Shown in pieces: positions 7,355-39,051 of a DNA stretch of 40,814 bases. Position 1 is the stretch's first letter. The number at the start of each line of letters is the position of its first letter. Both the position numbers and the translations under genes were made by a program. The notes beneath the pieces were generated by a model that saw only the letters and a program-made list of their open reading frames with translations, searched no databases and was not told where the DNA came from. This DNA is from Solirubrobacterales bacterium (GTDB taxonomy: Bacteria > Actinomycetota > Thermoleophilia > Solirubrobacterales > Solirubrobacteraceae): assembly GCA_019244395.1 (NCBI GenBank), contig JAFASQ010000277.1, positions 1-40,814 of the forward strand, written 5' to 3'.

Positions 7355-7364
7355 GGCGCGGCCC

Positions 7365-20523: not shown

Positions 20524-21774
20524 GTGGCCGTTGACTCAAGCCAAGTCGCACACGTCGAGACCGAGCCCGGCGAGCTCCCGCGGACGATGGCCGCCTGGGT
20601 GATCCGCGAGGAGCGCCAAGGCGAGCCGACCGACGCCTTCCAGATCGAGGAGATCGAGGTACCGGAGCCCGGGGCGTTCGAGGTAATCGTGCGCGTGATG
20701 GCCGCCGGCGTGAACTTCAACAACGTGTGGGCGGCGCTCGGCGAGCCGGTTTCGGTGTTCCGCTACCACCCCGACGAGAACCACCACATCGGCGGCTCGG
20801 ACGCCTCCGGCGTCGTCTGGAAGGTGGGGCCGGGCGTGACTCGCTGGAAGCCCGGCGACGAGGTCGTGATCCACTGCAACCAGGCGTCCTACGAGGATCC
20901 CGAGGTTCACGGTCTCGACCCGCTCGCCGCCCCTTCGCAGCGGATCTGGGGCTACGAGACGAGCTGGGGCTCGTTCGCCCAGTTCTGCAAGGTCCAGGCC
21001 CAGCAGCTGCTGCCGAAGCCCGCGCATCTGGCCTGGGAGGAGGCCGCGGCTTACGGACTGACCTACTTCACCGCGTACCGCATGCTGATCGACCGGTGCC
21101 GCCTTCAGGCCGGGCACCGGGTGCTGATCTGGGGGGCGGCGGGCGGGCTCGGCGTGTTCGCCACCCAGCTGTGCGCGCTGACCGGCGCGGACGCCGTTGG
21201 CGTCGTGTCCAGCGAGGAGAAGGGCCAGCTGATCAGGCAGCTGGGAGCGGTCGACTACATCAACCGCTCGGAGTTCGCCGGCATGATGCGCCGCGGCGAC
21301 GAGAGCGTCGACGAGGAGCGCGCCCGCTTCAAGGAGTCCCGGCGGTTCTGCAAGGCGGTCGAGGCGATCCTGGGCGAACCGCCGGACATCGTGTTCGAGC
21401 ACGTCGGCAAGGCCACCTTCCCCACTTCGGTGCTGGTGGTCAGGCCGTTCGGCAAAGTGGTGATCTGCGGCGCGACCTCGGGCTATCAGCTCGACTTCGA
21501 CGTCCGCTACCTGTGGATGCGCCAGAAGGAGATCGTCGGCTCACACTTCGCCAACGCGTGGGAGGCGACCAAAGCCAACCAGTTGATCGAGGAGTCCAAG
21601 GTGCGCCCGGTGCTGTGGCAGACGATGGGCTTCGAGAAGGTGGGCGAGGCGCACCAGCTCCTGCGTGACAACCTGCACCTGGGAAAGATCGCCATCCTGG
21701 TCGGCGCCACCGAGGAGGGCCAAGGCAAGACAGCCGAGGGTCCCGGCGCGATCCGAGCCGAGGTGGGCGCCTGA
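20524..21774 (+). CDS. ccr: Crotonyl-CoA carboxylase/reductase (Ccr)
   Basis: NADPH-dependent reductive carboxylation of crotonyl-CoA to (2S)-ethylmalonyl-CoA, the signature step of the ethylmalonyl-CoA pathway; also supplies extender units to some polyketide synthases. It is a 416-aa zinc-less MDR protein with NADPH motif GAAGGLG (204-210). The CO2-pocket positions described for Kitasatospora Ccr have equivalents here: Asn66 (NFNNVW), Tyr144-Glu145 (WGYET, where Kitasatospora has Phe-Glu) and His341 (GSHFAN). The GSDASGVVWKVG and RYLWMRQKEI blocks are typical of Ccr rather than of quinone reductases. The start is GTG at 20524, behind AAGGAAGG. It shares a TGATG stop/start with the following unknown gene. 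Confidence 0.93.
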   Translation: MAVDSSQVAHVETEPGELPRTMAAWVIREERQGEPTDAFQIEEIEVPEPGAFEVIVRVMAAGVNFNNVWAALGEPVSVFRYHPDENHHIGGSDASGVVWKVGPGVTRWKPGDEVVIHCNQASYEDPEVHGLDPLAAPSQRIWGYETSWGSFAQFCKVQAQQLLPKPAHLAWEEAAAYGLTYFTAYRMLIDRCRLQAGHRVLIWGAAGGLGVFATQLCALTGADAVGVVSSEEKGQLIRQLGAVDYINRSEFAGMMRRGDESVDEERARFKESRRFCKAVEAILGEPPDIVFEHVGKATFPTSVLVVRPFGKVVICGATSGYQLDFDVRYLWMRQKEIVGSHFANAWEATKANQLIEESKVRPVLWQTMGFEKVGEAHQLLRDNLHLGKIAILVGATEEGQGKTAEGPGAIRAEVGA

Positions 21775-22142
21775 TGGCCGGTGTGGTCCACATCGACTGG
21801 TACTCCACGGTCCTGCGCCAGGAGCAGTTCGCCATCGAGGTCGCCTACGTGGCCCCGCTCGCGCTGCGCTACGGCGCGACCCAGTACGCAGTCCACCGAT
21901 CACGCGACGACCGCTACAAGATCATGCAGATGGCCTGGTTTGAGACCAAGCAGGACTGGTACCGGTACTGGGACGGAATCGAGATGATCGAGTTCCGCCG
22001 CCGGAACCTCGGCCATTACCAGATCCCGATCACCTACGTGTGGTACGACGAGCTGGTGGCGGGCGCGCTCGGTCCCGAGGTCCAGGCGGAGCCCGAGCCG
22101 GAGCCGGAGCCCACAGCGCCGGCGCCGCCGGCAATCGCTTGA
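21774..22142 (+). CDS. Unknown 122-aa protein coupled to ccr
   Basis: Not recognised. The first 95 residues form a compact aromatic-rich domain (MAGVVHIDWYSTVLRQEQFAIEV... then MQMAWFETKQDWYRYW, ending ITYVWYDELV) whose strand/helix rhythm could be a dimeric alpha-beta barrel; this is a guess. The C-terminal 25 residues are EPEPEPEP/Ala-Pro repeats, encoded by a stretch that runs into a 26-bp tandem repeat. The ATG overlaps the ccr stop by one base (TGATG), which strongly implies co-translation and a linked job. It does not resemble ethylmalonyl-CoA epimerase (VOC family) or any acyl-CoA enzyme I know. Confidence 0.75.
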   Translation: MAGVVHIDWYSTVLRQEQFAIEVAYVAPLALRYGATQYAVHRSRDDRYKIMQMAWFETKQDWYRYWDGIEMIEFRRRNLGHYQIPITYVWYDELVAGALGPEVQAEPEPEPEPTAPAPPAIA

Positions 22143-22178
22143 AACCGGCGCCGCCGGCAGTCGCTTGAAACCGACGCC
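22119..22178 (+). repeat. 26-bp tandem repeat, 2.3 copies, across a stop codon
   Basis: Copies at 22119-22144 and 22145-22170 differ at one base (A/G), and a third partial copy runs from 22171 to 22178. The unit reads CCGGCGCCGCCGGCaaTCGC followed by TTGAAA. The stop codon of the 122-aa gene (22140-22142) lies inside the first copy. It contains GGCGCC and CCGGCG palindromes, so a folded mRNA end is likely. Confidence 0.75.
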
Positions 22179-22196
22179 AATCCGCGCGCGACCTCC

Positions 22197-22202
22197 TATC
22201 CT
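22197..22202 (+). promoter_or_regulatory. Candidate -10 element for the desaturase gene
   Basis: TATCCT, 8 nt before the GTG at 22211. No Shine-Dalgarno lies between, consistent with a leaderless message. No -35 is evident. Confidence 0.45.
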
Positions 22203-22210
22203 TCGCGCCC

Positions 22211-23107
22211 GTGAGTCGTCCACACAAGATCGCCAACCTGATCGGCGTGCCGCTGCCCATGGTGGGGCTGGTCGTCGCGATCGTGGTGCTGTGGGACCGC
22301 GCGATCGGGCCCCTCGAGCTGGCCTTGCTGATCGGCCTGTACCTGCTGACCGCGCTCGGGGTGACACTCGGCTACCACCGCATGTTCACCCACCGCGCGT
22401 TTGAGTCGAGTCGAGCCTTCCGCGCGATCATGGCCATTCTCGGTTCAATGGCGGTGCAGGGGTCGGTCATAACCTGGGTGGCGGACCACCGCAAACACCA
22501 CACGTTCACCGACCAGGCGGGCGATCCGCATTCGCCGCACCTGGCTGGCCCGGGGTTCTGGGGCGCTGTCAAAGGCCTGTGGCACGCGCACGTAGGGTGG
22601 CTGTTCGAAAGCGTCGGCACTGCCGAGCGCGAGCGCTTCGCCGCCGATCTGCTCAAGGACCGCGTACTCCGTGTAATCGACCGACTGTTCGCCCTCTGGG
22701 TGGGGCTGAGCTTCGCGATCCCGTTCGCGGCGGGATGGCTTCTGGGAGGCGGCCTCGGCGCGGCGCTCACCGCTCTGCTCTGGGGCGGCTTCGTCCGGGT
22801 GTTCCTGCTCCATCACGTCACCTGGTCGATCAACTCGGTGTGCCACTTCTTCGGGCGTAGGCGATTCAACATCGAAGACGAATCGCGCAACGTGTTCTGG
22901 CTGGCGCCGCTGTCCATGGGCGAGGCCTGGCATCACAACCACCATGCCTTCCCGACCTCCGCCTTCCACGGCCTGAGCCCACTCGAGCGCGTGGCGGACC
23001 CCACTGGCCTGCTCATCGCCTTGCTCGAGAAACTGGGGATCGTCTGGAACGTGGTCAGAGTCAGCCCCGAACGCCAGCGAGCCAAAGCGCTTCCCCGGCG
23101 CGCGTGA
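22211..23107 (+). CDS. Membrane fatty-acid (acyl-CoA/lipid) desaturase
   Basis: Integral-membrane di-iron desaturase of the stearoyl-CoA desaturase family, 298 aa, introducing a cis double bond (typically delta-9) into acyl chains. The three histidine boxes are complete: HRMFTH (about residues 57-62), DHRKHH (about 91-96) and HHNHH (about 238-242). Hydrophobic segments flank them, and LGYHRMFTHRAF plus GEAWHHNHHAFP are diagnostic. The start is GTG at 22211. It lies after ccr and the 122-aa gene on the same strand but with its own -10-like hexamer, so co-regulation with them is uncertain. No fused cytochrome b5 domain; the electron donor must be separate. Confidence 0.92.
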   Translation: MSRPHKIANLIGVPLPMVGLVVAIVVLWDRAIGPLELALLIGLYLLTALGVTLGYHRMFTHRAFESSRAFRAIMAILGSMAVQGSVITWVADHRKHHTFTDQAGDPHSPHLAGPGFWGAVKGLWHAHVGWLFESVGTAERERFAADLLKDRVLRVIDRLFALWVGLSFAIPFAAGWLLGGGLGAALTALLWGGFVRVFLLHHVTWSINSVCHFFGRRRFNIEDESRNVFWLAPLSMGEAWHHNHHAFPTSAFHGLSPLERVADPTGLLIALLEKLGIVWNVVRVSPERQRAKALPRRA

Positions 23108-23114
23108 TCGGAGC

Positions 23115-23402
23115 CTAGCCGGACTCGAGTGGCGCCATCGTCAGCCCGGCGCCTTCCAACTGCACCCAGTATCCCTCGGCCTCGTCGCGTGGCCCGCTCC
23201 ACACGATCGCGCAGCCCGTCTTGTGGATGCGATCGGCGAACCGGTATCCCTCGGCCAGCGTCACACCCGGGATCACCCGGCACAGCGTCTCCGCCACGTG
23301 ATCGAACGTATTGTGGTCGTCGTTCAGGACGACGACCCGCCACAGCCCGCCCACACCGCTGCCGGGTCCGCCTACGCGGGGCAGCTCAACCGTCTGCGAC
23401 AT
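23115..23402 (-). CDS. clpS: ClpS-like N-end-rule adaptor
   Basis: Adaptor that delivers N-degron substrates to ClpAP/ClpCP protease. The 95-aa protein has the usual unstructured N-terminus (MSQTVELPRVGG) and the ClpS core VVVLNDDHNTFDHVAETL with the conserved Asn-Asp-Asp, then a long helix (LAEGYRFADRIHKTGCAIV). It corresponds to the usual length of 95-106 aa. The ATG at 23402 is preceded by TATCCT exactly 7 nt upstream and no Shine-Dalgarno, so it is probably leaderless. The HNTF variation in place of the common xTPM is also seen in actinobacterial and cyanobacterial ClpS. Confidence 0.88.
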   Translation of the reverse strand: MSQTVELPRVGGPGSGVGGLWRVVVLNDDHNTFDHVAETLCRVIPGVTLAEGYRFADRIHKTGCAIVWSGPRDEAEGYWVQLEGAGLTMAPLESG

Positions 23403-23409
23403 CGAGCTG

Positions 23410-23415
23410 AGGATA
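23410..23415 (-). promoter_or_regulatory. Candidate -10 element for clpS
   Basis: TATCCT on the minus strand, 7 nt upstream of the clpS ATG at 23402. It has the same hexamer and spacing as ygfZ. No -35 recognised. Confidence 0.5.
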
Positions 23416-23449
23416 CCCGCCGCCGCGCCACCCGGGCCATCGCCACGGG

Positions 23450-24301
23450 TCACCCCGAGCGAACCGCCTCGCTCCGCTTGCGCCAGTAACGCTCGAAACC
23501 GGCGTACAGCTGCTCCGGGGGCGCGGCCTGCTCGTAGGCCGGCACTGTTTCGACGTCGACGTGGGCTGAGATCTCCGTCCGGATCCCGTCGACGAACCCC
23601 TCGAGATCCTGCTCGCGGGCCAGCGCCGCCCAATCATCGAGCCGCAGCGAGAGTTCGGCCAACTGAGCGTCCACGTCCTCGGTCGCGCCGAAGTGCGTCA
23701 TGACCAGGCGGCGCGGCTTCCAGGCGGCGATCCGTTCGATCGAGGCGTGCCACTTCTCGACATCGATGTCGGGCGGTGGGCTCGGCGGGATCGTGAGCGG
23801 CGAGCCGGCGATCCGCACGCCACCGGTGTCGCCCACGAAGGCCACGCCGTCGTGCAGATAGGAGACATGGTGCGAGGCGTGCCCCGGCGTGTAGGCGACG
23901 TCGAACTCGCCGCCGAGCAGCGTCTCGCCGCCGTGCAGGACGCGCAAGTTGGCCTCGGGGACTGGCACCATGTCGCCCCACAGCCGGTCCATGTCCTCGC
24001 CGTACAGCTTCCGGGCGCTCTCGAGCAGCCGCTCCGGACGAGCCAAGTGCGACGCGCCACGCTCGTGCACGTAGACCTCAAGGTCCGGCCATCGCTCGAT
24101 GAGCGACCCGGTCGCACCGGCGTGATCGAGGTGGATATGGGTAAGCAGCAGCGCCCGCGGACGATCAGCGCCGAGGCCTTCGAGCAACGTGGAAAGGCAC
24201 GACGTCGGCCCCGGGTCGATCACCACGTCGCCGACCAACCACACGCCGATCACCTGCGGACGCCCGAGGTGCATGACGTCGATGAGCCGCATCTCGGCCA
24301 T
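23450..24301 (-). CDS. Metallo-beta-lactamase fold hydrolase
   Basis: Binuclear-metal hydrolase of 283 aa with the signature THIHLDH (His55, His57, Asp59, His60), followed by TPGHASHH, VGDTGG and VMTHFG carrying the remaining ligands. This glyoxalase II-like arrangement is used by thioesterases, lactonases and phosphodiesterases. The C-terminal 80 residues are helical and charged (WAALAREQDLEGFVDGIRTE), as in many MBL proteins annotated only by fold. It follows the DivIVA-like gene by 14 bp and is likely co-transcribed. A thioesterase role in the nearby CoA pathway (malyl-CoA thioesterase is missing) is conceivable but has no direct support. Confidence 0.88.
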   Translation of the reverse strand: MAEMRLIDVMHLGRPQVIGVWLVGDVVIDPGPTSCLSTLLEGLGADRPRALLLTHIHLDHAGATGSLIERWPDLEVYVHERGASHLARPERLLESARKLYGEDMDRLWGDMVPVPEANLRVLHGGETLLGGEFDVAYTPGHASHHVSYLHDGVAFVGDTGGVRIAGSPLTIPPSPPPDIDVEKWHASIERIAAWKPRRLVMTHFGATEDVDAQLAELSLRLDDWAALAREQDLEGFVDGIRTEISAHVDVETVPAYEQAAPPEQLYAGFERYWRKRSEAVRSG

Positions 24302-24315
24302 GCCGGAGCCGGCGG

Positions 24316-25044
24316 CTAGCGCGGCTCGGTGTCCTCCTCGTCGGGCTCGACCACGGGCATGGTCGCGGTCGGCTCGACATCCGGATCTTGTTCTGCGACA
24401 TCCCGATTTTGCTCTCGCGTCGGCACCTCGTCGGGCAAGGCATCCTCGACCGGGACCTCGACGGGAGCCGGGTCGGCCCGCGGGTCTTCCTCGAGGACGG
24501 TCACCGCTGAGCGATCAGCGTCCGCCGCGGTCGGGTCGGGCGGGAAACGGTCGGCGGCAGAACCGGTCAGCGTCAGCAGCTCGCGCGCCAGCTCGCGCGT
24601 GTCCTCGACGATCCGGTGGCGCTCGGCCCAGATCCGGTCGGTCTCGGCGTCCAGCTCGCGGACGCGCTCCTCAGCGCGGGCGCTGATCTGCGCCGCCTCC
24701 TGCCGCGCCGTCTCGAGCCGATCCTCGGCCTCGGTGCGCGACTGGGCCGTGATCTGGGCCGCAGTCTCGTGGGCGCGCTGCAGGATGCCCGAGACCTCCT
24801 CCCCCACGCGCTCGAGCGCGCGGCGGATCGCCGCGTCCGGCGAGCGCGTCGCCTGAAGCTCGGCGACGAGCTGGCTCGTTCGCTGCACGTACGCGTCAAC
24901 TGCGTCACGGTCATACCCACGCAGCACGATGGGGAAGTCGACGTCGGCCGCGACCGGGACGGGATCGTCGGGAAGGGTGGCCAGCGGCGCGGTGATCTCC
25001 TGCATCAGGGCATGTTCGGTGGATGCTTTGCTCTGATCGGGCAT
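24316..25044 (-). CDS. DivIVA-like coiled-coil protein
   Basis: 242-aa protein probably involved in cell-pole, septum or cell-wall organisation. The DivIVA hallmark FPIVLRGYDRDAVDAYV (about residues 37-53) precedes a long coiled coil (about 55-160) rich in Ala, Glu, Arg and Gln (SGILQRAHETAAQITAQSRTEAEDRLE...). The last 75 residues are disordered and acidic with repeated DP/VP/EE runs. Initiation at 25044 is favoured because TATGGT lies 7 nt upstream (leaderless pattern); an ATG at 25056 directly behind GGAGGGG is the alternative. It is the first of a probable divIVA-MBL run and divergent from ecm. Confidence 0.8.
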   Translation of the reverse strand: MPDQSKASTEHALMQEITAPLATLPDDPVPVAADVDFPIVLRGYDRDAVDAYVQRTSQLVAELQATRSPDAAIRRALERVGEEVSGILQRAHETAAQITAQSRTEAEDRLETARQEAAQISARAEERVRELDAETDRIWAERHRIVEDTRELARELLTLTGSAADRFPPDPTAADADRSAVTVLEEDPRADPAPVEVPVEDALPDEVPTREQNRDVAEQDPDVEPTATMPVVEPDEEDTEPR

Positions 25045-25051
25045 GCCCCGG

Positions 25052-25057
25052 ACCATA
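25052..25057 (-). promoter_or_regulatory. Candidate -10 element for the DivIVA-like gene
   Basis: TATGGT on the minus strand, 7 nt before the ATG at 25044. The ATG inside it (25056) is an alternative start codon, so either the hexamer or the start call may be wrong. Confidence 0.35.
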
Positions 25058-25101
25058 GCCCCTCCGCCCCGGAACCGCACGTCCGCCGCCCCTCCCCCTC
25101 A

Positions 25102-25107
25102 TAGAAT
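25102..25107 (+). promoter_or_regulatory. Candidate -10 element for ecm
   Basis: TAGAAT, 8 nt before the ecm ATG at 25116. There is no Shine-Dalgarno between, so the mRNA is probably leaderless. It is divergent from the DivIVA-like gene within a 71-bp gap. Confidence 0.5.
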
Positions 25108-25115
25108 TCGGCTCG

Positions 25116-27179
25116 ATGTCGCAGACGCCTTCACCCCACCTGCCCGAGCCCGATCGGCCGTGGATGATGCGGACCTACGCGGGGCATTCGGACGCCAAGC
25201 GCTCCAACCAGCTCTACCGCAGGAACCTCGAGAAGGGCCAGACCGGGCTGTCCATCGCCTTCGACCTGCCTACCCAGACGGGCTACGACCCCGACCACGA
25301 GCTGGCCAGAGGCGAGGTCGGGAAGGTCGGCGTCTCGATCGCCCACGAGGGCGACATGGCCACCCTGCTCGACAGCATCCCGCTCGACCAGATGAACACG
25401 TCGATGACGATCAACGCCACCGCGGCCTGGCTGCTGGCCCTCTACATCGTCGCCGCCGACGCCCAGGGCGTCCAGCAGGAGAAACTCCAGGGCACCACTC
25501 AGAACGACATCCTCAAGGAGTACCTGAGCCGCGGCACCTACGCCTTCCCGCCCGGTCCGAGCATGCGGTTGATCGCGGACACGATCGCCTACACGGTCCA
25601 GCACATCCCCAAATGGAACCCGATCAATATCTGCTCCTACCACCTCCAGGAGGCCGGCGCGACCCCCGTGCAGGAGATCGCCTTCACGATGGGCAACGCG
25701 ATCGCCGTCCTCGACGCGGTCAAGCCGCGAGTTCCGCAGGAGCTCATGGGCAGCGTCTTCGGCCGCATCTCGTTCTTTGTCAACGCCGGTGTGCGGTTCG
25801 TCGAGGAGCACGCCAAGCTGCGCGCGATGGCGGTGCTCTGGGACGAGCTTGGCCGCGACCGCTACGGCGTGGAGGACGAGAGGCACCGCCGCCTGCGCTA
25901 CGGCGTCCAGGTCAACTCGCTCGGCCTGACCGAGGCGCAGCCCGAGAACAACGTCTACCGGATCGCGCTCGAGGCGCTGGCGGTGACGCTCGGCCGCGGC
26001 GCCCGCGCACGGGCGATCCAGCTCCCGGCCTGGAACGAGGCGCTCGGCCTGCCTCGACCCTGGGACCAGCAGTGGTCGCTTCGCCTCCAGCAGATCCTCG
26101 CCTACGAGACCGACCTGCTCGAGTACCCGGACATCTTCGAGGGCTCCAAGGTGATGGAGGGGCTGGTCTCAGAGCTGCTCGCGGGAGCCCGGACCGAGAT
26201 GCAGCGGGTGGCGCAGCTCGGTGGCGCCGTCGACGCCGTCGACTACATGAAGGCGGCGCTGGTCGAGTCCCAGCGCAAGCGCTGGCAGCGCATCGAGTCC
26301 GGCGAGCAGGTCGTGGTTGGCATGAACCGCTTTATCTCGACTGAGGCCTCGCCGCTGAGAGCCGGAGCCGACGGCGGGATCCTGGTCGTCGACCCGGAGG
26401 TCGAGGCCGAGCAGCGAGCGGCGGTGGAGCGCTGGCGCGCCGACCGCGATCCGAGCGCCGTCGACGGCGCGTTGCAAGAACTCGCCCGCATCGCCCGCGA
26501 CGACACCGAGAACGTGATGCCGGCCACGATCGCCGCGGCTCGGGCCGGCGTCACGACCGGCGAGTGGGCGCACACGCTGCGCGAGGCGTTCGGCGAGTAC
26601 CGCGCCCCCACCGGCGTCACCGAAGCCGCCGCCCCCGCGAGCGAAGAGGTGTCCGAACTCCGGACCGAGGTCGAGCGGGTCAGCGAAGCCCTCGGCCGAC
26701 GCCTCAAGCTTCTGGTCGGCAAGCCCGGCCTCGACGGGCATTCCAACGGGGCCGAGCAGATCGCGGTGCGTGCCCGCGACGCCGGCATGGATGTGGTCTA
26801 CGAGGGGATCCGCCTGACTCCGTGGCAGATCGCGACGTCGGCAGCGCAGGAGGGCGTGCACGTGGTGGGGCTGTCGATCCTGTCGGGCTCGCACCGGGAG
26901 CTGATCCCAGCCGTGCTGGACGCGCTCCGCGAGGCGGGTGTGGAGGATGTCCCGGTCGTGGTGGGCGGGATCATTCCCGACGCCGACGCTGACGCCCTGC
27001 GCGAGGCCGGCATCGCGGCCGTCTACACGCCCAAGGACTGGAACCTGAACGGGATGATGCGCGACATCATCGAGCTGGTCGCCGAGCCGCCGGATGCGTC
27101 GGGCACCGCCCGATCAGGCGAGGCCGGACGGCGAGCGGGCGGCGGGCCCGAGGGCCTCGAGACCGCCGTGGGCGCTTGA
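25116..27179 (+). CDS. ecm: Ethylmalonyl-CoA mutase (Ecm)
   Basis: Adenosylcobalamin-dependent rearrangement of (2R)-ethylmalonyl-CoA to (2S)-methylsuccinyl-CoA. The single 687-aa chain has the catalytic TIM-barrel (about 1-510) and the B12-binding domain (about 535-665) with D540-x-H542-x-x-G545 in KPGLDGHSNG. The N-terminal block MMRTYAGHSDAKRSN, then FDLPTQTGYD (methylmalonyl-CoA mutases read FDLATHRGYD), matches Rhodobacter Ecm as I remember it over long stretches (MNTSMTINATA, WNPINICSYHLQEAGATP), so Ecm is preferred over Mcm. Ccr 3.3 kb upstream supports this. The C-terminus ends in a Gly/Arg-rich tail of about 25 residues. meaB follows with a 4-bp overlap. Confidence 0.9.
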   Translation: MSQTPSPHLPEPDRPWMMRTYAGHSDAKRSNQLYRRNLEKGQTGLSIAFDLPTQTGYDPDHELARGEVGKVGVSIAHEGDMATLLDSIPLDQMNTSMTINATAAWLLALYIVAADAQGVQQEKLQGTTQNDILKEYLSRGTYAFPPGPSMRLIADTIAYTVQHIPKWNPINICSYHLQEAGATPVQEIAFTMGNAIAVLDAVKPRVPQELMGSVFGRISFFVNAGVRFVEEHAKLRAMAVLWDELGRDRYGVEDERHRRLRYGVQVNSLGLTEAQPENNVYRIALEALAVTLGRGARARAIQLPAWNEALGLPRPWDQQWSLRLQQILAYETDLLEYPDIFEGSKVMEGLVSELLAGARTEMQRVAQLGGAVDAVDYMKAALVESQRKRWQRIESGEQVVVGMNRFISTEASPLRAGADGGILVVDPEVEAEQRAAVERWRADRDPSAVDGALQELARIARDDTENVMPATIAAARAGVTTGEWAHTLREAFGEYRAPTGVTEAAAPASEEVSELRTEVERVSEALGRRLKLLVGKPGLDGHSNGAEQIAVRARDAGMDVVYEGIRLTPWQIATSAAQEGVHVVGLSILSGSHRELIPAVLDALREAGVEDVPVVVGGIIPDADADALREAGIAAVYTPKDWNLNGMMRDIIELVAEPPDASGTARSGEAGRRAGGGPEGLETAVGA

Positions 27180-28150
27180 CCGAACGCACCCGGGCCAGCG
27201 GCCGCGACCTGGGGACGAGACTTCGCGAGGGCGACCTCGCCGCCGCCCCCGCCGCGCTCAACCTCCTCGAGAGCCGCACGCCGGACGCCCGGGAGCAGGC
27301 CGAGGCGCTGCTGGCCGAGGTCTCGCCCGCCGCGCTGGGCCATGAACCGCCGGCCCACGTCATCGGGCTCACCGGGCCGCCCGGCGTGGGCAAGTCCTCG
27401 CTGCTCTCCCGCCTGATCCGCGAGTGGCGCGACCGGGGGCGCTCGGTCGCCGTCCTCGCGGTCGACCCGAGCTCCCGGCGCTCGGGCGGGTCGCTGCTCG
27501 GCGATCGCGCCCGGATCGAGATCGACCCGCGCGACCGCCAGGTGTTCATCCGCTCGACCGCGGCCGGGGAGCGCCTCGGCGGGCTCGCGCCGGCCACACG
27601 CACGGCCGCACAGGCATTGGCCGCCGCGTTCGACGTGGTGGTGATCGAGACCGTCGGGGTGGGACAGTCCGAGACGGACATCGTCGACACGGCCGACACC
27701 GTGGCGGTGGTGCTCCAGCCCGCCTCCGGCGACGTGCTCCAGTTCCTCAAGGCGGGGATCATGGAGGTACCCGACGTGTTGGTCCTCACCAAATCTGATC
27801 TGGGTAGCGCCGCCAAGCGGGCGCTCGCCGACCTGCACGCGGCCCTCGCCGCACTCGGAGCCGGCGCGACCCCCGTGTGCGCGGTGTCCTCGGTGCCGCC
27901 GCCGACCGGCATCCCCGCTCTGGCCGACGCGCTCGAGGCACACCACGCCGGCCTCGACCTGTCCGGGCACCGCCTCCGAGCCCGGCGCCGTCAGGCCCTC
28001 GACGAGTTCGTCGCCGAGCACGGCGAGCGTGGCCTGCGAGCCCTCGGCGGACGCCTCGAGGCCCAGCGCTGGCTCGAGCGCCAGGACGAGACACTCGACG
28101 CGTCCTCGCTGGAGCGATCGCTCGAGGCCCGTACCCAGGAGTCCCCGTGA
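27176..28150 (+). CDS. meaB: MeaB/ArgK-type G3E GTPase, mutase chaperone
   Basis: GTPase that loads, protects and reactivates adenosylcobalamin mutases. The 324-aa sequence has the Walker A GPPGVGKS (67-74), AVDPSSRRSGGSLLGDRARI, VIETVGVGQSE and the base-recognition motif LTKSD. The start is the rare TTG at 27176, overlapping the ecm stop (TTGA), which couples its translation to the mutase. Although annotated for methylmalonyl-CoA mutase in many genomes, here the partner is the Ecm-type enzyme. It in turn overlaps the GNAT gene (GTGA). Confidence 0.93.
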   Translation: MTERTRASGRDLGTRLREGDLAAAPAALNLLESRTPDAREQAEALLAEVSPAALGHEPPAHVIGLTGPPGVGKSSLLSRLIREWRDRGRSVAVLAVDPSSRRSGGSLLGDRARIEIDPRDRQVFIRSTAAGERLGGLAPATRTAAQALAAAFDVVVIETVGVGQSETDIVDTADTVAVVLQPASGDVLQFLKAGIMEVPDVLVLTKSDLGSAAKRALADLHAALAALGAGATPVCAVSSVPPPTGIPALADALEAHHAGLDLSGHRLRARRRQALDEFVAEHGERGLRALGGRLEAQRWLERQDETLDASSLERSLEARTQESP

Positions 28151-28779: not shown

Positions 28780-28782
28780 GCT
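28777..28782 (+). promoter_or_regulatory. Candidate -10 element for moaA
   Basis: TAGGCT, 9 nt before the moaA ATG and overlapping the TAG stop of the GNAT gene. It would allow independent transcription of moaA. Confidence 0.3.
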
Positions 28783-28791
28783 CTGGTCACG

Positions 28792-31620: not shown

Positions 31621-31661
31621 GCCGGGCTGGTGTGAGGCCGTCGAGCTCCTGACGCCGGCGC

Positions 31662-32273: not shown

Positions 32274-32310
32274 CAGCGCCCCTCGCGGTGCTCACTCACA
32301 GCCGGGATCG

Positions 32311-32316
32311 TAGAAT
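32311..32316 (+). promoter_or_regulatory. Candidate -10 element for the zinc-ribbon gene
   Basis: TAGAAT, 7 nt before the ATG at 32324. It is identical to the hexamer ahead of ecm and fbiC, again with no Shine-Dalgarno. Confidence 0.45.
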
Positions 32317-32323
32317 CAAGGCA

Positions 32324-32896: not shown

Positions 32897-33656
32897 CCCG
32901 CTGCCAGCCCTCGGTGATCAGCAGCGCGAGCGCCACCGGCACGGTCGCCGGCAGCTCGGAGATGACCAGGAACAGCAGGTCGAACACGGCGGCGATGGCG
33001 AAGGTCAGTACCGCCGCTTGCCATTGCCTGCGCCACTGCGCCGCGAGCACCGCCCCTAGCAGCCCGGCCACGAACAGGTCGCCGTAGCCCATCGAGACGG
33101 TCCCGAAGAGCTCGCTCTGGAGCTGCGGGAGGCCGGCCGGCGGATGCGCCGCGACGAGCGCCGCATTGGGGGCCTGGAGAAGATCCGACACCACGAGCCA
33201 GGTGTCGGCGGCCGCCATCAGCACGATCCCGGCCTTCAGCCAGGGTGTCGGCGTCACGGCCGCCAGCAGCACGCCGAGCGTGACGCAGCTGAGCGCCGAC
33301 AAGAGCGCCCCCGAGGCCTCTCCGACCAGCGAGGTCTTGTCCAACCAGGCGAGCAGGAACAGCGGGAGGACCAGTAGCGCCGCCCACGTCCGGGACCCGC
33401 GCGCCGCCCACCCCAGTGCGGCGGCGGCCAAGAGCGGCACGGCGATCAGGGCCAGCCAGGTGAGCCCGGTGGCCGTGTCCGATACGTACCGGATCGCGAA
33501 CACCACGACGACGATCGACCCGATCGGCACGAGCCCCCAGCCGCGGCCGTGCAAGCGCCTGAGCCAGGCCGGCCGCGGCATCGCCCGCGGCGCCGCGACC
33601 ACGGCGGCCTGAAGCGCCAGCAGACCGGCGTCCGAGGGAATGAAGGGGAGGGCCAT
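32829..33656 (-). CDS. Multi-pass membrane protein with presenilin/SPP-like GxGD features
   Basis: 275 aa with about nine predicted transmembrane segments (roughly 5-23, 42-56, 66-83, 90-105, 115-134, 141-160, 188-206, 212-231, 236-250). Three elements fall where intramembrane aspartyl proteases of family A22 have their active site: Asp151 in the sixth segment (AAADTWLVVSD), GYGD with Asp193 at the start of the seventh (SMGYGDLFVAGLLGAVL), and a Pro-Ala-rich ELPATVPVALAL at the ninth, like the PAL motif. The usual Tyr before the first Asp is Ala here. Prepilin peptidases also have GxGD but a different layout. A protease role is an inference; the protein may only share the pattern. Confidence 0.62.
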   Translation of the reverse strand: MALPFIPSDAGLLALQAAVVAAPRAMPRPAWLRRLHGRGWGLVPIGSIVVVVFAIRYVSDTATGLTWLALIAVPLLAAAALGWAARGSRTWAALLVLPLFLLAWLDKTSLVGEASGALLSALSCVTLGVLLAAVTPTPWLKAGIVLMAAADTWLVVSDLLQAPNAALVAAHPPAGLPQLQSELFGTVSMGYGDLFVAGLLGAVLAAQWRRQWQAAVLTFAIAAVFDLLFLVISELPATVPVALALLITEGWQRVNAASRRRRPSMRADAIPRQAR

Positions 33657-33662
33657 ACCGTC

Positions 33663-33668
33663 AGATTA
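33663..33668 (-). promoter_or_regulatory. Candidate -10 element for the GxGD membrane protein
   Basis: TAATCT on the minus strand, 6 nt before the ATG at 33656, with no Shine-Dalgarno. A 6-bp hairpin (33669-33683) abuts it. Confidence 0.4.
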
Positions 33669-33683
33669 GGCGCCGCGGGCGCC
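33669..33683. terminator. Short GC hairpin in the gap after the 246-aa gene
   Basis: GGCGCC-GCG-GGCGCC forms a 6-bp stem in the 79-bp gap between two minus-strand genes. It may terminate the upstream pair or act as an operator beside the -10 element. GGCGCC is self-complementary, so chance occurrence is likely in this GC-rich DNA. Confidence 0.3.
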
Positions 33684-33735
33684 AGAGCTCACGAGACTTC
33701 GATAGCTCTTCGAGACGCGGGCCTGCCTCGCCGCG

Positions 33736-34476
33736 TCAGCTCGAGGTCGGCTGCGCGACGAGCCGTTCCAGCAGTCGCCGCAGCGCGTCGTGATCGATGC
33801 CCTGCGCCTTGAAGCGATCGGGATTGTCGGGGTCGCGCAGGAATACGTGCAAGTGCTCCCCCTCCCGCGCCAGGACCACGTCCGTCTTCTCTCGATCACC
33901 CGAGTCGCGCCAGCGGCTGACGGTGACCAGCGCGGTCTTCGCGCTTGCCGCGAGCGCCGCGTCGAGGTCGGCATCCCCCGGCCCACGGTCGCCGTCGGGA
34001 AGCCGCTCGAGGAGGCGTTCGAGCGCGTCCTCGGTCGTGCGGAGCGAGTAGAAGTGAATGCCCAGTGCGTCAATCCGCACCTCTAGAGTGACCTTCTCGG
34101 GCTGTGGCATGTGCAGAAAGCGCCACGGCGTATCGGGTTCGGTACCGGTCAGCCGGGCGTCGACGACCAGTCGACTGCGCTGCTGGAAGGCGACGGCGAT
34201 GCCCAGGTCGCCACGCACCTCGATGTACTCATCGCCGGGATTCGTCGTGATCAGGTCACGCGCGGCGAGCGAGCGAACCGCTTCGCTGATCGCCTCTTGG
34301 GAAGGCTCGTGCTCGAGGAACTCGATCAGGACTCCCACCGAGAAGATCTCAGCGGCGGTGTAGGCGCCGAGCGGCACCGGCCCGGTGCCGACGAGGTTGA
34401 CGATCGCGCGGATCAGCTCTGAGGAGACGTCGCCCTCGCGAGCCGTGGCGGTGGCGGCGGTGTCGGCGGCGTTCAT
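33736..34476 (-). CDS. Unknown protein, 246 aa, coupled to the preceding gene
   Basis: Not recognised. The soluble protein begins MNAADTAATATAREGDVSSELIRAI. It has an N-terminal helical part resembling a winged-helix/effector layout (SQEAISEAVRSLAARDLITTN), a middle beta-rich region and a C-terminal segment (HVFLRDPDNPDRFKAQGIDHDALRRLLERLV). The overall order recalls EspG-type chaperones of ESX secretion systems, but the match is weak and no ESX gene is nearby. The ATG at 34476 gives a 4-bp overlap (ATGA) with the 316-aa gene, so they are one operon. Charged composition and normal codon use argue that it is real. Confidence 0.7.
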   Translation of the reverse strand: MNAADTAATATAREGDVSSELIRAIVNLVGTGPVPLGAYTAAEIFSVGVLIEFLEHEPSQEAISEAVRSLAARDLITTNPGDEYIEVRGDLGIAVAFQQRSRLVVDARLTGTEPDTPWRFLHMPQPEKVTLEVRIDALGIHFYSLRTTEDALERLLERLPDGDRGPGDADLDAALAASAKTALVTVSRWRDSGDREKTDVVLAREGEHLHVFLRDPDNPDRFKAQGIDHDALRRLLERLVAQPTSS

Positions 34477-35423
34477 TCCTGCTCCGTTGTGTCGGGGGAC
34501 GCCGTCCGCAACGCGTACACCAGGGTTCGCTCGTCGTCCAGCTCTAGCGTCTGCCGTCGGCTGGCCTCGACCGGTGGTAGCCGCCAGCCGGGCGGTTCGA
34601 CGTCGCGGCGCAGCAGCTCCTTGGCGGTTTCGCCCGCCGTCCTGGTGACCCACACGTCCGAGCCGGCGAATAGGCCCCGACCTTGAACCTCGCCCGTGAA
34701 GGTGAGCTCGCGAAGGTCGTCGGCTCGGTCGGGGGGCGCAAAGCGCGCCGCCAGTTCCGGGGACGCGGAGGTCACATCGTCGCTCTCCTCGAGCCGGGAG
34801 ACGACTCGCGTGAGCTCGTCGGCGGCGGCTTTCGGAAGCGGCACCCTCGCCGTTAGGTCGGGCGATAGGTACATCGGCCGCTTCTCGGTGTCGACCGATC
34901 GTCCCCACGGCCCGATGTTGCTGCGCGTCACCCGGTACATGACGTAATCGGCCAGATGCACCAGGTCGTGCCAGGAGGGCAGCTTGCGCTTGCCGAACGC
35001 CGCCGGGGTCTTCTCCAGCTGCACCCACGTTCCACGCTCCGTCCGTCCGTGCAGCTTCTCTCGCAGGAGCGGGCCGCGCATGCCGATGTCCGGGTACTTC
35101 TGCTTGTCGATCTCGTGGTGGTGGCTGGAGACTCGGAGGTGGCTGGCCTTGGGGAACCGCCAACGCTCGTACAGCGAGGGGTCGTCGACGAGCACGTGCG
35201 CGCCCCGCAGCACGTCGCGCAGCTGGATCACGTTGAGCCCGTGGTGTTCGAGATCGGCGAGCACCGCGGCCTCCTGGGGGGTGAGGAGCTCGGCCGCTTT
35301 CTCCAGGCCGCGTCGATAGCCGCCGGGCCGCGCCGAGATCTCAACCATCAGGCGCACGCGGCGCCGGATGCGCTCCGTTGAGCCCGGCTGCGATGCGGCG
35401 GTCGGCGGCGATGCGGCGGGCAT
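34473..35423 (-). CDS. Unknown protein, 316 aa
   Basis: Not recognised. It is soluble, with two parts: an N-terminal helical region (about 20-85, LTPQEAAVLADLEHHGLNVIQLRDVL) and a middle region rich in His, Trp and Tyr (SSHHHEIDKQKYPDIGMRG, then LPSWHDLVHLADYVMYRVT and NIGPWGRS), which may be a catalytic or binding domain. The C-terminal third is charged. There is no signal peptide or membrane helix. A TATCGT hexamer lies 9 nt before the ATG. It is the first gene of a two-gene operon with the 246-aa protein. I cannot propose a function beyond partnership with that protein. Confidence 0.7.
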   Translation of the reverse strand: MPAASPPTAASQPGSTERIRRRVRLMVEISARPGGYRRGLEKAAELLTPQEAAVLADLEHHGLNVIQLRDVLRGAHVLVDDPSLYERWRFPKASHLRVSSHHHEIDKQKYPDIGMRGPLLREKLHGRTERGTWVQLEKTPAAFGKRKLPSWHDLVHLADYVMYRVTRSNIGPWGRSVDTEKRPMYLSPDLTARVPLPKAAADELTRVVSRLEESDDVTSASPELAARFAPPDRADDLRELTFTGEVQGRGLFAGSDVWVTRTAGETAKELLRRDVEPPGWRLPPVEASRRQTLELDDERTLVYALRTASPDTTEQE

Positions 35424-35432
35424 CTCGCGAGA

Positions 35433-35438
35433 ACGATA
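35433..35438 (-). promoter_or_regulatory. Candidate -10 element for the 316-aa gene pair
   Basis: TATCGT on the minus strand, 9 nt before the ATG at 35423. It lies between the pckG stop (35445) and the gene start, so no other room for a promoter exists. Confidence 0.4.
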
Positions 35439-35444
35439 CGCCGG

Positions 35445-37262
35445 CTACTTGCGCAGGCGGCGCTCGAGTGCCTCGAACTGGGCCCGCAACTCGCCTGGCA
35501 GCTTCTCGCCGAACCGCGCGTAGTGCTCGCGCATCTGCGGCAGCTGCTCGATCCAGCAGTCGGCGTCGACCTCGATCAGCTTCTCGACTGCCTCCCGCTC
35601 GATGCCAAGCCCGCTCGTGTCGATCCCGCCCTCGCCGACCGGGGGCACGAGACCGATTGCCGTCTCGTTCGCGTCAGCCTGGCCTTCGAGCCGCCGGAAG
35701 ATCCAGGCCAGCACGCGCGAGTTCTCCCCGAACCCCGGCCACAGGAACTTGCCGTCGTCGTCGCGGCGGAACCAGTTGACGTAAAAGATCCTGGGAAGCT
35801 GGGCTCCTTCGCGACGACCGATGTTCAGCCAGTGCTGGAAGTAGTCGGCCATGTTGTAGCCGCAGAAGGGCAGCATCGCCATTGGGTCGAAGCGGAGCTT
35901 CCCGACCGCGCCGGCCTGGGCGGCGGTCGTCTCCGAGGACATCGTCGAGCCGAGGAACACCCCGTGCTCCCAGTCGCGCGCCTCGTAGACCAGCGGCACG
36001 ACGGTGCCCCGCCGGCCGCCGAACAGCATCGCGTCGATCGGCACGCCAGCGGGGTCGTCCCATTGCGGGTCGATCGAGGGACACTGGGCGATGCGCACCG
36101 TGAAGCGGGCGTTCGGATGCGCGGCCGTCGACTCCTCCGCCGGCGTCCATTCGTTGCCGCGCCAGTCGATCGCGTGCTCGGGCGGATCGCTCATCCCTTC
36201 CCACCAGATGTCACCTTCGTCGGTCTTGGCGCAGTTCGTGAACACCACATCGTGCTCGAGCATCTTCAGCGCGTTCGGGTTGGTCTTCTTGCTCGTCCCG
36301 GGGGCTACACCGAAGAACCCGGCCTCGGGATTCACGGCGTACAGCCGGCCGTCCTTGCCGAACTTCATCCACGCGATGTCGTCGCCGATCGTTTCGACCT
36401 TCCACCCGGGCAGGGTCGGGATCATCATCGACAGGTTGGTCTTGCCGCAGGCACTCGGGAATGCGCCGGCGATGTACTTCGACTCGCCCTCGGGGGAGGT
36501 CATCTTGAGGATCAGCATGTGCTCGGCGAGCCAGCCCTCGTCGCGCGCCATGACCGAGGCGATCCGCAGCGCGAAGCACTTCTTGCCGAGGAGCGCGTTC
36601 CCTCCATAGCCCGAGCCGAACGACCAGATCTCCCGGCTCTCGGGGAAATGCACGATGTACTTGTTCTCGGCGTTGCACGGCCACGGGACGTCCTGTTCAC
36701 CCTCGGCCAGCGGCGCCCCGAGCGAATGCAGACACGGCACGAAGTCGCCGTCGTCGCCGAGCTCGTCGAGCGCCTCCTGTCCCATCCGGGTCATGATCCG
36801 CATCGAGGCCACCACGTACGGCGAGTCGGTCAGCTGTACGCCGATGTAGGAGATCGGGGATCCGATCGGCCCCATCGAGAACGGGACGACGTACATCGTG
36901 CGTCCGCGCATCGCGCCCCGAAACAGCCCGGTGAGGGTCTGGCGCATTTCCTCGGGATCGGTCCAATTGTTCGTGGGGCCGGCGTCGTCCTCGTCCAGCG
37001 AGCAGATGAAGGTCCGATCCTCAACCCGAGCCACATCGGCCGGGTCCGACAGCGCCAGGTAAGAGTTCGGGCGCTTGGCGTCGGAAAGCCGCTCGGCGGT
37101 CCCGGCCGCCACCAGCACCTGAGCCAGCCGCTCGTACTCCTCGTCTGACCCGTCGCACCACTGGATCTCCTCGGGCTGGGTGAGCCCTGCCACCTCGTCT
37201 ACCCACTCCTGGAGGCGAGGATGGTTGGTCGTGGCTTGATGCGTCGGTGCAGTATGGGCCAT
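35445..37262 (-). CDS. pckG: Phosphoenolpyruvate carboxykinase (GTP)
   Basis: Converts oxaloacetate plus GTP to PEP, CO2 and GDP, the entry to gluconeogenesis from C4 acids. The 605-aa sequence has the GTP-type features: the P-loop [11 protein letters not shown] with the hyper-reactive Cys272, and [22 protein letters not shown] (about 490-515), both typical of the GTP rather than ATP family. It sits on the same strand as, and 99 bp downstream of, the mesaconyl-CoA hydratase candidate, and close to the lyase gene. That fits growth on acetate-type substrates, where PEPCK drains C4 products of the ethylmalonyl-CoA pathway. Confidence 0.96.
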
Positions 37263-37361
37263 GAGCGTTCAGCGACTCCTAGGGTCTCGGGGGGTTTCAA
37301 GCCTACCCGGGCTAGGCCGAATATGGCCCGCTGGTGGCCTAACTACGGTGCGCAGACCTAC

Positions 37362-37907
37362 TCATTCAACGTTCGCCTCGGCCGACCGGGTAGTCCCAGC
37401 CTCGGCGCCGGAGTCGCGCCGGGGGACGAGCACGAGGCGCTTGAACTCGGCCACTAGGACGCCGTCCTGATTGAGCACTCGGGTGTGCACGCGGACCGTT
37501 CCGCGGTCGGGCTTCGACTGCGAGGGGCGTACCTCGAGCACCTCGGATTCACAGAACAAGGTGTCGCCGTGGAATACGGGAGCCGGGTGCTTTAGCTCCT
37601 CGGTGGCGAGGTTGGCGATCGCCTTGCCGCTCACGTCCGAGACGCTCATACCGAGCGCCAGCGAGTAGACCAGCGGGCCGACGACGACGTTGCGGCCCTG
37701 TTGGGACTGGGCGGCGTACACGTCGTTGATGTGGAGCGGATGGTGGTTCATGGTGATGAGGCAGAACAGGTGATCGTCGGCCTCGGTCACGGTCTTGGCC
37801 GGCCAGTGCTTGTACACCGCCCCGACTTCGAATTCCTCCAGGTAGCGCCCGTACGGGTGGGCGCCGCTCGCCTCGCGAACGGTCTGATCGGTGTCGACTT
37901 GGTTCAT
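37362..37907 (-). CDS. MaoC-type enoyl-CoA hydratase, candidate mesaconyl-CoA hydratase
   Basis: Single hotdog-fold protein of 181 aa. The hydratase-2-like motif is present as MNHHPLHINDVYA, with Asn54 in place of the usual Asp and His59 as the conserved base, followed by VVVGPLVYSLALGMSVSD and FHGDTLFCESEV. This Asn variant with a short chain resembles actinobacterial MaoC proteins paired with CitE-like lyases (Rv2499c/Rv2498c), which act on itaconyl-, citramalyl- or mesaconyl-type CoA esters, rather than the roughly 355-residue Chloroflexus Mch. It is divergent from the lyase gene across 76 bp. Hydration of mesaconyl-CoA to beta-methylmalyl-CoA is the role inferred from context; itaconyl-CoA hydratase is the main alternative. 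Confidence 0.75.
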   Translation of the reverse strand: MNQVDTDQTVREASGAHPYGRYLEEFEVGAVYKHWPAKTVTEADDHLFCLITMNHHPLHINDVYAAQSQQGRNVVVGPLVYSLALGMSVSDVSGKAIANLATEELKHPAPVFHGDTLFCESEVLEVRPSQSKPDRGTVRVHTRVLNQDGVLVAEFKRLVLVPRRDSGAEAGTTRSAEANVE

Positions 37908-37969
37908 GGCGCGGGAGGATGCCAGGTCCGAACGACCGCGGGCGCCGCCCTGACGCACCCAAACCCAAC

Positions 37970-37975
37970 TAACGT
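37970..37975 (+). promoter_or_regulatory. Candidate -10 element for the lyase gene
   Basis: TAACGT, 8 nt before the ATG at 37984, with no Shine-Dalgarno, in the 76-bp divergent gap shared with the hydratase gene. Confidence 0.4.
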
Positions 37976-37983
37976 TCCCGCCC

Positions 37984-39051
37984 ATGCGAAACCCCCGTGA
38001 CTTTGGAAAGCCCCTGGCCATCGGCGCGCCCGCGCCGGTGCTCGAGATCCCGTTCAAGCCCTCCCGGATGATCCACTTCCTGGACTTCTCGAACGAGAAG
38101 ATGGTCGCCAAGGTGCCAGACATCGCGCCGACGGTCGACATCCTGCTGGGCAACCTCGAGGACGCCGTGCCGGTCGACCGCAAGCAGGCTGCGCGCGAGG
38201 GCGTGGTTCGCGTTGGCCAGGAGATGGATCTGGGTGATACCCAACTGTGGACGCGGGTCAACAGCCTCGAGTCGCCGTGGGTGCTGGACGACATCACCAC
38301 GCTGGTGCGCGAGATCGGTCACAAACTCGACGTGATGATGATCCCCAAGGTGGAGGGAGCGTGGGACATCCACTACGTCGATCGGCTGCTCGCTCAGCTC
38401 GAGGCGCGAGCCGACCTCGAGCGCCCAATACTGATCCACGCCATCCTCGAGACCGGCCTCGGCGTGGTCAACCTCGAGGAGATCGCCACCGCCAGCCCGA
38501 GGATGCAGGGGATGAGCTTCGGCCCGGCCGACTTGGCCGCCTCGCGCCGGATGAAGACCACGCGCGTGGGCGGCGGGCACCCGGGCTACCGGGTGATCGA
38601 GGACCCAGACCCGTCCGACCCCGAAGCGACGCGTGCGACGGCCCAGCAGGACCCGTGGCACTACTCGATCGCGCGGATGGTCGATGCCTGCACCTCGGCC
38701 GGGATCCTCCCGTTCTACGGCCCGTACGGAGACATCCGCGACGTGCAGGGGTGCGAGACTCAGTTTCGTGCCGCGTTCCTGCTCGGCTGCGTCGGCGCCT
38801 GGTCGCTTCACCCGGTCCAGATCGACATCGCCAAGAAGGTGTTCAGCCCCGATCCCGACGAAGTGCGGTTCGCCAAGAAGGTTCTCGAGGCGATCCCCGA
38901 CGGCCGCGGCGTCCACATGATCGACGGCAAGATGCAGGACGACGCGACCTGGAAGCAGTGCAAGGTCATGGTGACGCTGGCCGAGATGCTCGCCCACAGG
39001 GATCCCGACCTGGCCGAGGCATACGGGTTCGAGCCCGCGGCGGCAGTCTAG
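37984..39051 (+). CDS. Malyl-CoA / beta-methylmalyl-CoA lyase, Chloroflexus-like
   Basis: CitE/HpcH-fold, Mg2+-dependent lyase of 355 aa; such enzymes cleave malyl-CoA to acetyl-CoA plus glyoxylate and beta-methylmalyl-CoA to propionyl-CoA plus glyoxylate. Sequence blocks match the Chloroflexus aurantiacus malyl-CoA lyase as I recall it: [15 protein letters not shown] at the N-terminus, [10 protein letters not shown] (metal-binding acidic pair near 58-60), [52 protein letters not shown] and [14 protein letters not shown]. Alphaproteobacterial Mcl1 is clearly more distant. It completes the last step of the ethylmalonyl-CoA route suggested by ccr and ecm. The Rrf2 gene follows 20 bp later. Confidence 0.88.

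What the first reader, a model, noticed from the sequence alone, without database searches (positions are those of the whole stretch)
20524..39051. Dispersed ethylmalonyl-CoA pathway genes in a probable Thermoleophilia genome
Ccr (20524), Ecm (25116) plus MeaB (27176), a mesaconyl-CoA-hydratase candidate (37362) and a malyl/beta-methylmalyl-CoA lyase (37984) lie within 19 kb, with GTP-PEPCK adjacent. These are the diagnostic steps of the glyoxylate-shunt-free acetate-assimilation route known from Rhodobacter, Methylobacterium and Streptomyces. The genes are interleaved with unrelated ones, so the route is not an operon here. Epimerase, methylsuccinyl-CoA dehydrogenase and malyl-CoA thioesterase were not seen in the window. 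The combination suggests the organism assimilates acetate, C1 or polyhydroxybutyrate carbon this way.
Basis: partly seen in the sequence, partly recalled or inferred. Interest (0 to 1): 0.75.

Follow-up and report, generated by a model that had tools for sequence, protein, structure and literature searches.

The report
Acetate-assimilation gene cluster in soil actinobacteria
An uncultured soil-type bacterium of the order Solirubrobacterales carries a conserved gene cluster for the ethylmalonyl-CoA pathway, a known alternative to the glyoxylate shunt for growing on acetate, and most of its sampled relatives carry it while a few carry the shunt instead.

Summary
In detail: Ccr, Ecm, MeaB, a mesaconyl-CoA-hydratase candidate, a malyl/beta-methylmalyl-CoA lyase and GTP-PEPCK are real genes at the stated places; the hydratase is 181 aa, not 312. 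Nearest named relatives are Solirubrobacterales (Thermoleophilia). An epimerase and a malate synthase lie on other contigs. "Dispersed" is wrong: the neighbourhood is conserved in the order. Of 61 genomes, 53 hold ccr, lyase or Mcd candidate (one of them has isocitrate lyase); 8 hold none (seven have isocitrate lyase). An rpoB tree needs at least two changes of that state inside the genus. Unlike Rhodobacter, the lyase is Chloroflexus-type (64.6% identity), and the Mcd candidate is a short acyl-CoA dehydrogenase without the N-terminal extension and four pocket residues of characterised Mcd. A Streptomyces emc cluster has the same short dehydrogenase and hydratase types. It is a known pathway in a lineage for which two searches of the held library found no paper. 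No activity was tested.

The parts
20524..21774 (+). ccr, crotonyl-CoA carboxylase/reductase
   Evidence: TIGR01751 511.9 bits over the cut-off 378.55; best solved relative is 4gi2, named crotonyl-CoA carboxylase/reductase, 411.6 bits, ahead of AntE 342.6
21774..22142 (+). orf122, small conserved protein whose start overlaps the end of ccr; predicted ABM-like alpha+beta fold; function unknown
   Evidence: matched in 65 of 97 loci, ccr in 92; AlphaFold2 mean pLDDT 93.0; Foldseek best 2omo, E 2e-6
23450..24301 (-). MBL-fold hydrolase next to ecm; possible CoA-ester thioesterase (inference from position only)
   Evidence: Pfam Lactamase_B; matched in 53 of 97 loci
25116..27179 (+). ecm, coenzyme B12-dependent ethylmalonyl-CoA mutase
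   Evidence: below the methylmalonyl-CoA mutase equivalog cut-off (559.2 against 876); groups with Paracoccus, Ruegeria meaA, Methylobacterium and Streptomyces emc-cluster mutases, 100/100
27176..28150 (+). meaB, mutase-associated GTPase
   Evidence: Pfam MeaB 224.1 bits; slightly under the NCBIfam cut-off
35445..37262 (-). GTP-dependent phosphoenolpyruvate carboxykinase
   Evidence: PRK04210 model NF003253, 1001.8 bits, cut-off 504
37362..37907 (-). mch candidate, short single-domain MaoC hydratase (181 aa)
   Evidence: Pfam MaoC_dehydratas and MC_hydratase; RipB/Ich model 132.8 bits, under its cut-off 340; 64.8% to the hydratase of the Streptomyces emc cluster
37984..39051 (+). mcl, Chloroflexus-type malyl-CoA / beta-methylmalyl-CoA lyase, divergent from mch
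   Evidence: 64.6% identity over 342 aligned residues to 4l7z; 8 of 8 catalytic or Mg-site residues checked are kept, including Asn58

Best explanation
The window holds the core of an ethylmalonyl-CoA pathway that stands in for the glyoxylate shunt in this Solirubrobacterales bacterium. Inferred flow: crotonyl-CoA, made from two acetyl-CoA, is reductively carboxylated by Ccr to ethylmalonyl-CoA; an epimerase and Ecm (with MeaB) give methylsuccinyl-CoA; a short acyl-CoA dehydrogenase encoded on another contig gives mesaconyl-CoA; the short MaoC hydratase gives beta-methylmalyl-CoA; the Chloroflexus-type lyase splits it into glyoxylate and propionyl-CoA. Glyoxylate enters as malate through malate synthase, propionyl-CoA as succinyl-CoA, and PEPCK opens gluconeogenesis. 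Shown by sequence: gene presence, clade placement, linkage, no isocitrate lyase found. Inferred: every activity, the direction of flow, and the roles of the short dehydrogenase and hydratase.
For: Families. Ecm clade. Lyase identity and residues. No ICL in the genome at E <= 1e-20. Epimerase over cut-off (142.4 against 114.95). Mcd candidate at G000:C164, 80% to the dehydrogenase that lies between mch and mcl in L070. Malate synthase at C342. Of 61 genomes, at least one of ccr, mcl, Mcd candidate in 53 (1 with ICL), none in 8 (7 with ICL); Fisher p for ccr against ICL 5.6e-5, not corrected for relatedness. Class sample of 160: ccr in 39 of 43 of the order and 6 of 117 outside; ICL in 2 of 43 and 54 of 117. 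Cluster synteny. A Streptomyces record holds ccr, ecm, lyase, short hydratase and short dehydrogenase in a row. [quoted passage not shown] tsukubaensis (background section and passages seen).
Against: The Mcd candidate lacks the ~170-residue N-terminal extension, and PdMCD R252, A285, F287 and R376 read T, F, L and K; PMC5798300 reports R252 variants as inactive (passages). The hydratase has one MaoC domain and its best NCBIfam model is RipB/Ich, under the cut-off. G052 holds ccr, mcl, the dehydrogenase and ICL together. G028 has none of these. G037 and G040 keep the cluster without ccr, so the other genes can persist without Ccr. The genome is a 580-contig assembly, 93.56% complete and 4.15% contaminated, so absence of ICL is weaker than in a closed genome. 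Propionyl-CoA carboxylase was not searched.
Confidence: 0.88

Rival explanations
1. Ccr and Ecm supply or recycle ethylmalonyl-CoA for secondary metabolism, and the hydratase and lyase belong to an unrelated route.
For: Ccr homologues occur in polyketide clusters (PMC4606968, passages). AntE is the second best solved relative of Ccr.
Against: No polyketide-synthase domain appears among the 30 window ORFs scanned with Pfam (not every ORF was scanned, and some scanned ORFs are probably not genes). Ccr scores higher with 4gi2 than with AntE. Co-occurrence and linkage with mch, mcl and the dehydrogenase, and near exclusion of ICL, fit central metabolism.
Confidence: 0.04
2. The hydratase and lyase degrade itaconate or a leucine-derived C5 acid through citramalyl-CoA, because the hydratase resembles RipB and the Chloroflexus-type lyase can also split (S)-citramalyl-CoA.
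For: RipB/Ich is the best NCBIfam model of the hydratase. The Chloroflexus enzyme is trifunctional and cleaves (S)-citramalyl-CoA (PMC3832036, passages).
Against: The RipB score is well under the equivalog cut-off (132.8 against 340). The same short hydratase lies in a Streptomyces cluster next to ccr and ecm, though its best model is RipB/Ich too. mch and mcl lie with ccr and ecm in the fetched stretches, and mcl is missing from the 7 same-genus genomes with ICL.
Confidence: 0.12
3. The genome runs a Chloroflexus-like partial 3-hydroxypropionate route, with the lyase working in the synthetic direction.
For: The lyase belongs to the Chloroflexus group by identity and Asn58.
Against: Ccr and Ecm are not needed there (recalled). 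PMC3832036 states that Methylobacterium extorquens, which uses the ethylmalonyl-CoA pathway, also holds a lyase related to the Chloroflexus enzyme (passage). Malonyl-CoA reductase and propionyl-CoA synthase were not searched.
Confidence: 0.03

Closest known systems
Ethylmalonyl-CoA pathway of Rhodobacter sphaeroides and Paracoccus denitrificans
   Same: Ccr, Ecm and a malyl/beta-methylmalyl-CoA lyase; Ecm 64.0-64.4% identical to Paracoccus proteins; no isocitrate lyase found here, as in Rhodobacter (PMC3832036, passage)
   Different: Chloroflexus-type lyase; single-domain hydratase; short dehydrogenase without the N-terminal extension
emc cluster of Streptomyces (L188, Streptomyces sp. BHT-5-2, record without annotation)
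   Same: Ecm 62% and short hydratase 65% identical to the window proteins, short dehydrogenase 59% identical to that of L070
   Different: Ccr only 45% and lyase 32% identical; Streptomyces has one compact run of genes, here a looser cluster with the dehydrogenase on another contig
Malyl-CoA lyase of Chloroflexus aurantiacus (4l7z)
   Same: 64.6% identity, 8 of 8 checked residues kept including Asn58
   Different: sits in a cluster with ccr and ecm, so most likely works in the cleavage direction (inference)

Membership tests
Ethylmalonyl-CoA pathway | Crotonyl-CoA carboxylase/reductase present | tested here: met
   TIGR01751 over cut-off
Ethylmalonyl-CoA pathway | Mutase in the ethylmalonyl-CoA mutase clade | tested here: met
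   100/100 with MeaA/Ecm proteins; scpA proteins and own C188 and C434 mutases on the other side. The tree builder warns that long branches meet
Ethylmalonyl-CoA pathway | Epimerase | tested here: met
   TIGR03081 142.4 bits at C157, cut-off 114.95; its true substrate is not known
Ethylmalonyl-CoA pathway | Methylsuccinyl-CoA dehydrogenase | tested here: inconclusive
   Orthologue of the cluster dehydrogenase at C164; only match at E <= 1e-70 to the PdMCD core in 11 of 12 genomes, 40-43% identity; four pocket residues not kept
Ethylmalonyl-CoA pathway | Beta-methylmalyl-CoA lyase | tested here: met
   identity and 8 of 8 residues
Ethylmalonyl-CoA pathway | Mesaconyl-CoA hydratase | tested here: inconclusive
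   MC_hydratase and MaoC matches, one domain only; RipB/Ich best in NCBIfam, under cut-off
Ethylmalonyl-CoA pathway | Enzyme activities and acetate growth | not testable with these tools
   needs bench work
Characterised Mcd (PdMCD type) | ~170-residue N-terminal extension | tested here: not met
   403 aa; main match to PdMCD covers its residues 171-551
Characterised Mcd (PdMCD type) | Arg252, Ala285, Phe287, Arg376 of the substrate pocket | tested here: not met
   T, F, L, K; E535, R421, W318, T320 kept
Chloroflexus-group malyl-CoA lyases | At least 57% identity within the group and Asn58 | tested here: met
   64.6% and Asn; criteria from PMC3832036 (passages)
Two-domain mesaconyl-CoA hydratase | ~350 aa with two hot-dog domains (recalled; Pfam MC_hydratase is 353 positions) | tested here: not met
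   181 aa, one MaoC domain; it matches both halves of the 352-aa chain 4e3e
Glyoxylate shunt | Isocitrate lyase | tested here: not met
   no match at E <= 1e-20 in the genome

The most novel reading that the evidence does not exclude
Solirubrobacterales and Streptomyces use a second class of (2S)-methylsuccinyl-CoA dehydrogenase: a short acyl-CoA dehydrogenase that recognises the methyl-branched dicarboxylic substrate without the N-terminal extension or the Arg252/Ala285 pocket of the proteobacterial enzyme. In Solirubrobacterales the pathway is completed by a Chloroflexus-group lyase, and within one genus lineages have switched between this whole module and the glyoxylate shunt at least twice.
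Probability: 0.5. Interest if true: 0.55.

Novelty: new member of a known kind. Interest (0 to 1): 0.42.

Why it matters
It gives a testable account of how a little-cultured lineage, known here mostly from MAGs, assimilates acetyl-CoA. The near exclusion between this module and isocitrate lyase makes a switch between two central-carbon routes visible inside one genus. It also marks a dehydrogenase whose substrate recognition cannot be the one solved for the proteobacterial enzyme.

Tried and rejected
Rejected: the mutase as a methylmalonyl-CoA mutase; a Rhodobacter-type lyase (195.1 bits for 4l9y against 501.7 for 4l7z); the 312-aa reading of the hydratase ORF; orf122 as the epimerase (no Pfam or NCBIfam match at the limits used; ABM-like fold).

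Led nowhere or left open: the paper search for a trifunctional lyase (0 papers). Searches pairing Thermoleophilia names with other terms held more papers than were listed (166 with 20 listed; 361 with 5 listed), so only (0 papers each) bear on print status, and that library lacks most subscription papers. Of the CO2-pocket residues named for K. setae Ccr in PMC10966969 (passages) I saw only motif-level agreement by eye (VNFN, GYET where the Streptomyces chain 3hzz has GFET, GSHF); the K. setae alignment was not printed, so no numbering was mapped. The second structure job was not used. The Fisher values ignore relatedness. The rpoB tree holds 21 of the 30 genomes asked for, without G000, whose rpoB match is a fragment; G026, which carries one of the two changes, fills 46% of the columns. 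In that tree I labelled G002 and G023 as EMC although neither has ccr over the cut-off (G002 has a partial ccr and the dehydrogenase, no lyase match; G023 has lyase and dehydrogenase).
Full report
What is there. Ccr passes the curated cut-off of TIGR01751. The mutase is a single chain of 687 aa with a B12 domain and falls below the methylmalonyl-CoA mutase equivalog cut-off. The hydratase must start near 37907 and is 181 aa: the longer ORF runs into the divergent lyase gene, and homologues are 174-176 aa. The hydratase and lyase genes are divergent, with 76 bases between them.

Whose genome. The window is G000:C48:1-40814 of a 5.69-Mb assembly in 580 contigs, 93.56% complete and 4.15% contaminated. 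Of 292 Ccr relatives in genome contigs the best 80 were kept, at 75-94% identity, nearly all titled Solirubrobacterales or families and genera of it, or Actinomycetota.

Not dispersed. Mapping window proteins on the 97 loci then held (80 named Ccr loci plus 17 from the genome search, 5 of these from the own genome) gave ccr in 92, orf122 in 65, the MBL hydrolase in 53, ecm in 51 and meaB in 33; many loci are short contigs. L059 shows ccr - orf122 - MBL - ecm - meaB - PEPCK - mch and then nears the contig end. I fetched twenty stretches from 17 genomes, chosen because ccr or mcl lay there. In the 13 genomes with ccr in the stretches, ccr, ecm, mch and mcl recur in that linkage, mostly with meaB and PEPCK; L136 begins just behind ccr. 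In six stretches (L138-L143, families f3 and f4) a ~400-aa acyl-CoA dehydrogenase and an SCP2-like protein lie between mch and mcl. The SCP2 match is weak: 18.4 bits against a cut-off of 21.3. From, ccr and mcl share a contig in 17 of the 43 genomes that hold both; the other 26 have them on different contigs of split assemblies.

Completing the pathway. That dehydrogenase has an orthologue in the own genome at C164 (80% to the L070 protein), again next to an SCP2-like gene. It is the only match at E <= 1e-70 to the PdMCD core in 11 of 12 genomes; the twelfth, G012, has isocitrate lyase. Against it: it lacks the N-terminal extension, and R252, A285, F287 and R376 of PdMCD are T, F, L and K, while E535, R421, W318 and T320 are kept (residue roles from passages of PMC5798300). 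R421 also aligns with Arg in the FadE3 chain printed, so it is weak evidence; FadE3 is the best solved relative (407.7 bits against 314.4 for PdMCD). An epimerase over its cut-off and a malate synthase are present. Isocitrate lyase was not found.

Which enzymes. A tree of 21 mutases puts the window protein with Paracoccus, Ruegeria meaA, Methylobacterium and Streptomyces emc-cluster mutases (100/100); the scpA proteins and the own C188 and C434 mutases are on the other side. The builder warns that long branches meet and that the root is a midpoint. The lyase is 64.6% identical to the Chloroflexus enzyme over 342 residues with 8 of 8 checked residues kept, and gets 501.7 bits there against 195.1 for the Rhodobacter chain and 198.5 for another chain named malyl-CoA lyase, 5ugr. 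PMC3832036 says M. extorquens also has a lyase of this group (passage), so the type is not foreign to organisms with this pathway. A Streptomyces record holds ccr, ecm (62% to the window's), a CitE-like lyase (32%), a short hydratase (65%) and a short dehydrogenase (59% to that of L070) in a row. So the short hydratase and dehydrogenase look like the actinobacterial form, on one Streptomyces record, and the lyase is what sets this order apart from it.

Switching with the glyoxylate shunt. In G000 plus 60 relatives: ccr over cut-off in 47 of 61, lyase at E <= 1e-60 in 48, dehydrogenase at E <= 1e-130 in 50, isocitrate lyase in 8, malate synthase in 32. At least one of the first three in 53, of which one (G052) has isocitrate lyase; none in 8, of which 7 have isocitrate lyase and one (G028) has neither. 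In G006, G012, G013 and G024 a malate synthase lies right beside the isocitrate lyase (coordinates). In a class sample of 160 genomes, ccr is in 39 of 43 of the order and 6 of 117 outside; the lyase at 72% identity or more in 40 of 43 and 0 of 117 (4 outside match at 38-41%); isocitrate lyase in 2 of 43 and 54 of 117 (the split takes the unlisted genomes without a match to lie outside the order, as the listing appears sorted by kinship). An rpoB tree of 21 genomes needs at least two changes of the ICL label: G026 is sister to G008, which has ccr, and five others form a group beside G015 and G016, which have ccr.

Loose ends. Of 40 genomes with all three marker genes, 18 have a malate synthase match and 22 do not, so a malyl-CoA thioesterase would be needed there; the MBL hydrolase beside ecm is a candidate by position only. 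G037 and G040 keep MFS - orf122 - MBL - ecm - meaB with no ccr between MFS and orf122, and have mch, mcl, the dehydrogenase and malate synthase but no isocitrate lyase.

Verdict. A well-supported ethylmalonyl-CoA pathway, known in kind. I found no paper in the held library that joins ethylmalonyl-CoA with Solirubrobacterales or Thermoleophilia. Most interesting are the short dehydrogenase and the repeated switch with isocitrate lyase.

Noticed in passing
L253 (G037:C1:713000-732000) and L254 (G040:C2:785500-804500): An ethylmalonyl-CoA cluster with only ccr missing between the MFS gene and orf122; no ccr over the cut-off elsewhere in these genomes. Ethylmalonyl-CoA might be made by an acyl-CoA carboxylase there (speculation).
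   Followed up: partly
window 21774-22142: orf122, directly behind ccr and conserved in the order, predicted ABM-like fold, no Pfam or NCBIfam match.
   Followed up: partly
window 23450-24301: MBL-fold hydrolase divergent from ecm, matched in 53 of 97 loci; possible malyl-CoA thioesterase in genomes without malate synthase.
   Followed up: partly
L248:9049-10619; L138-L143; L150-L152: An SCP2-like small protein (weak Pfam match) travels with the Mcd candidate, also where the pair lies away from mch and mcl.
   Followed up: partly
G052 (L251, L252): The one genome of 61 with isocitrate lyase together with ccr, lyase and dehydrogenase.
   Followed up: no
window 39072-39530: Rrf2-family regulator just behind the lyase gene; also next to mcl in L137.
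   Followed up: no
window 5046-7640: 864-aa radical SAM protein with a CofH/MqnC C-terminal region, matched near ccr in 15 of 97 loci at more than 50% coverage.
   Followed up: no
G000:C434:25844-27198: Two mutase pieces on opposite strands next to each other in the own genome, which may be an assembly fault or a duplication.
   Followed up: no
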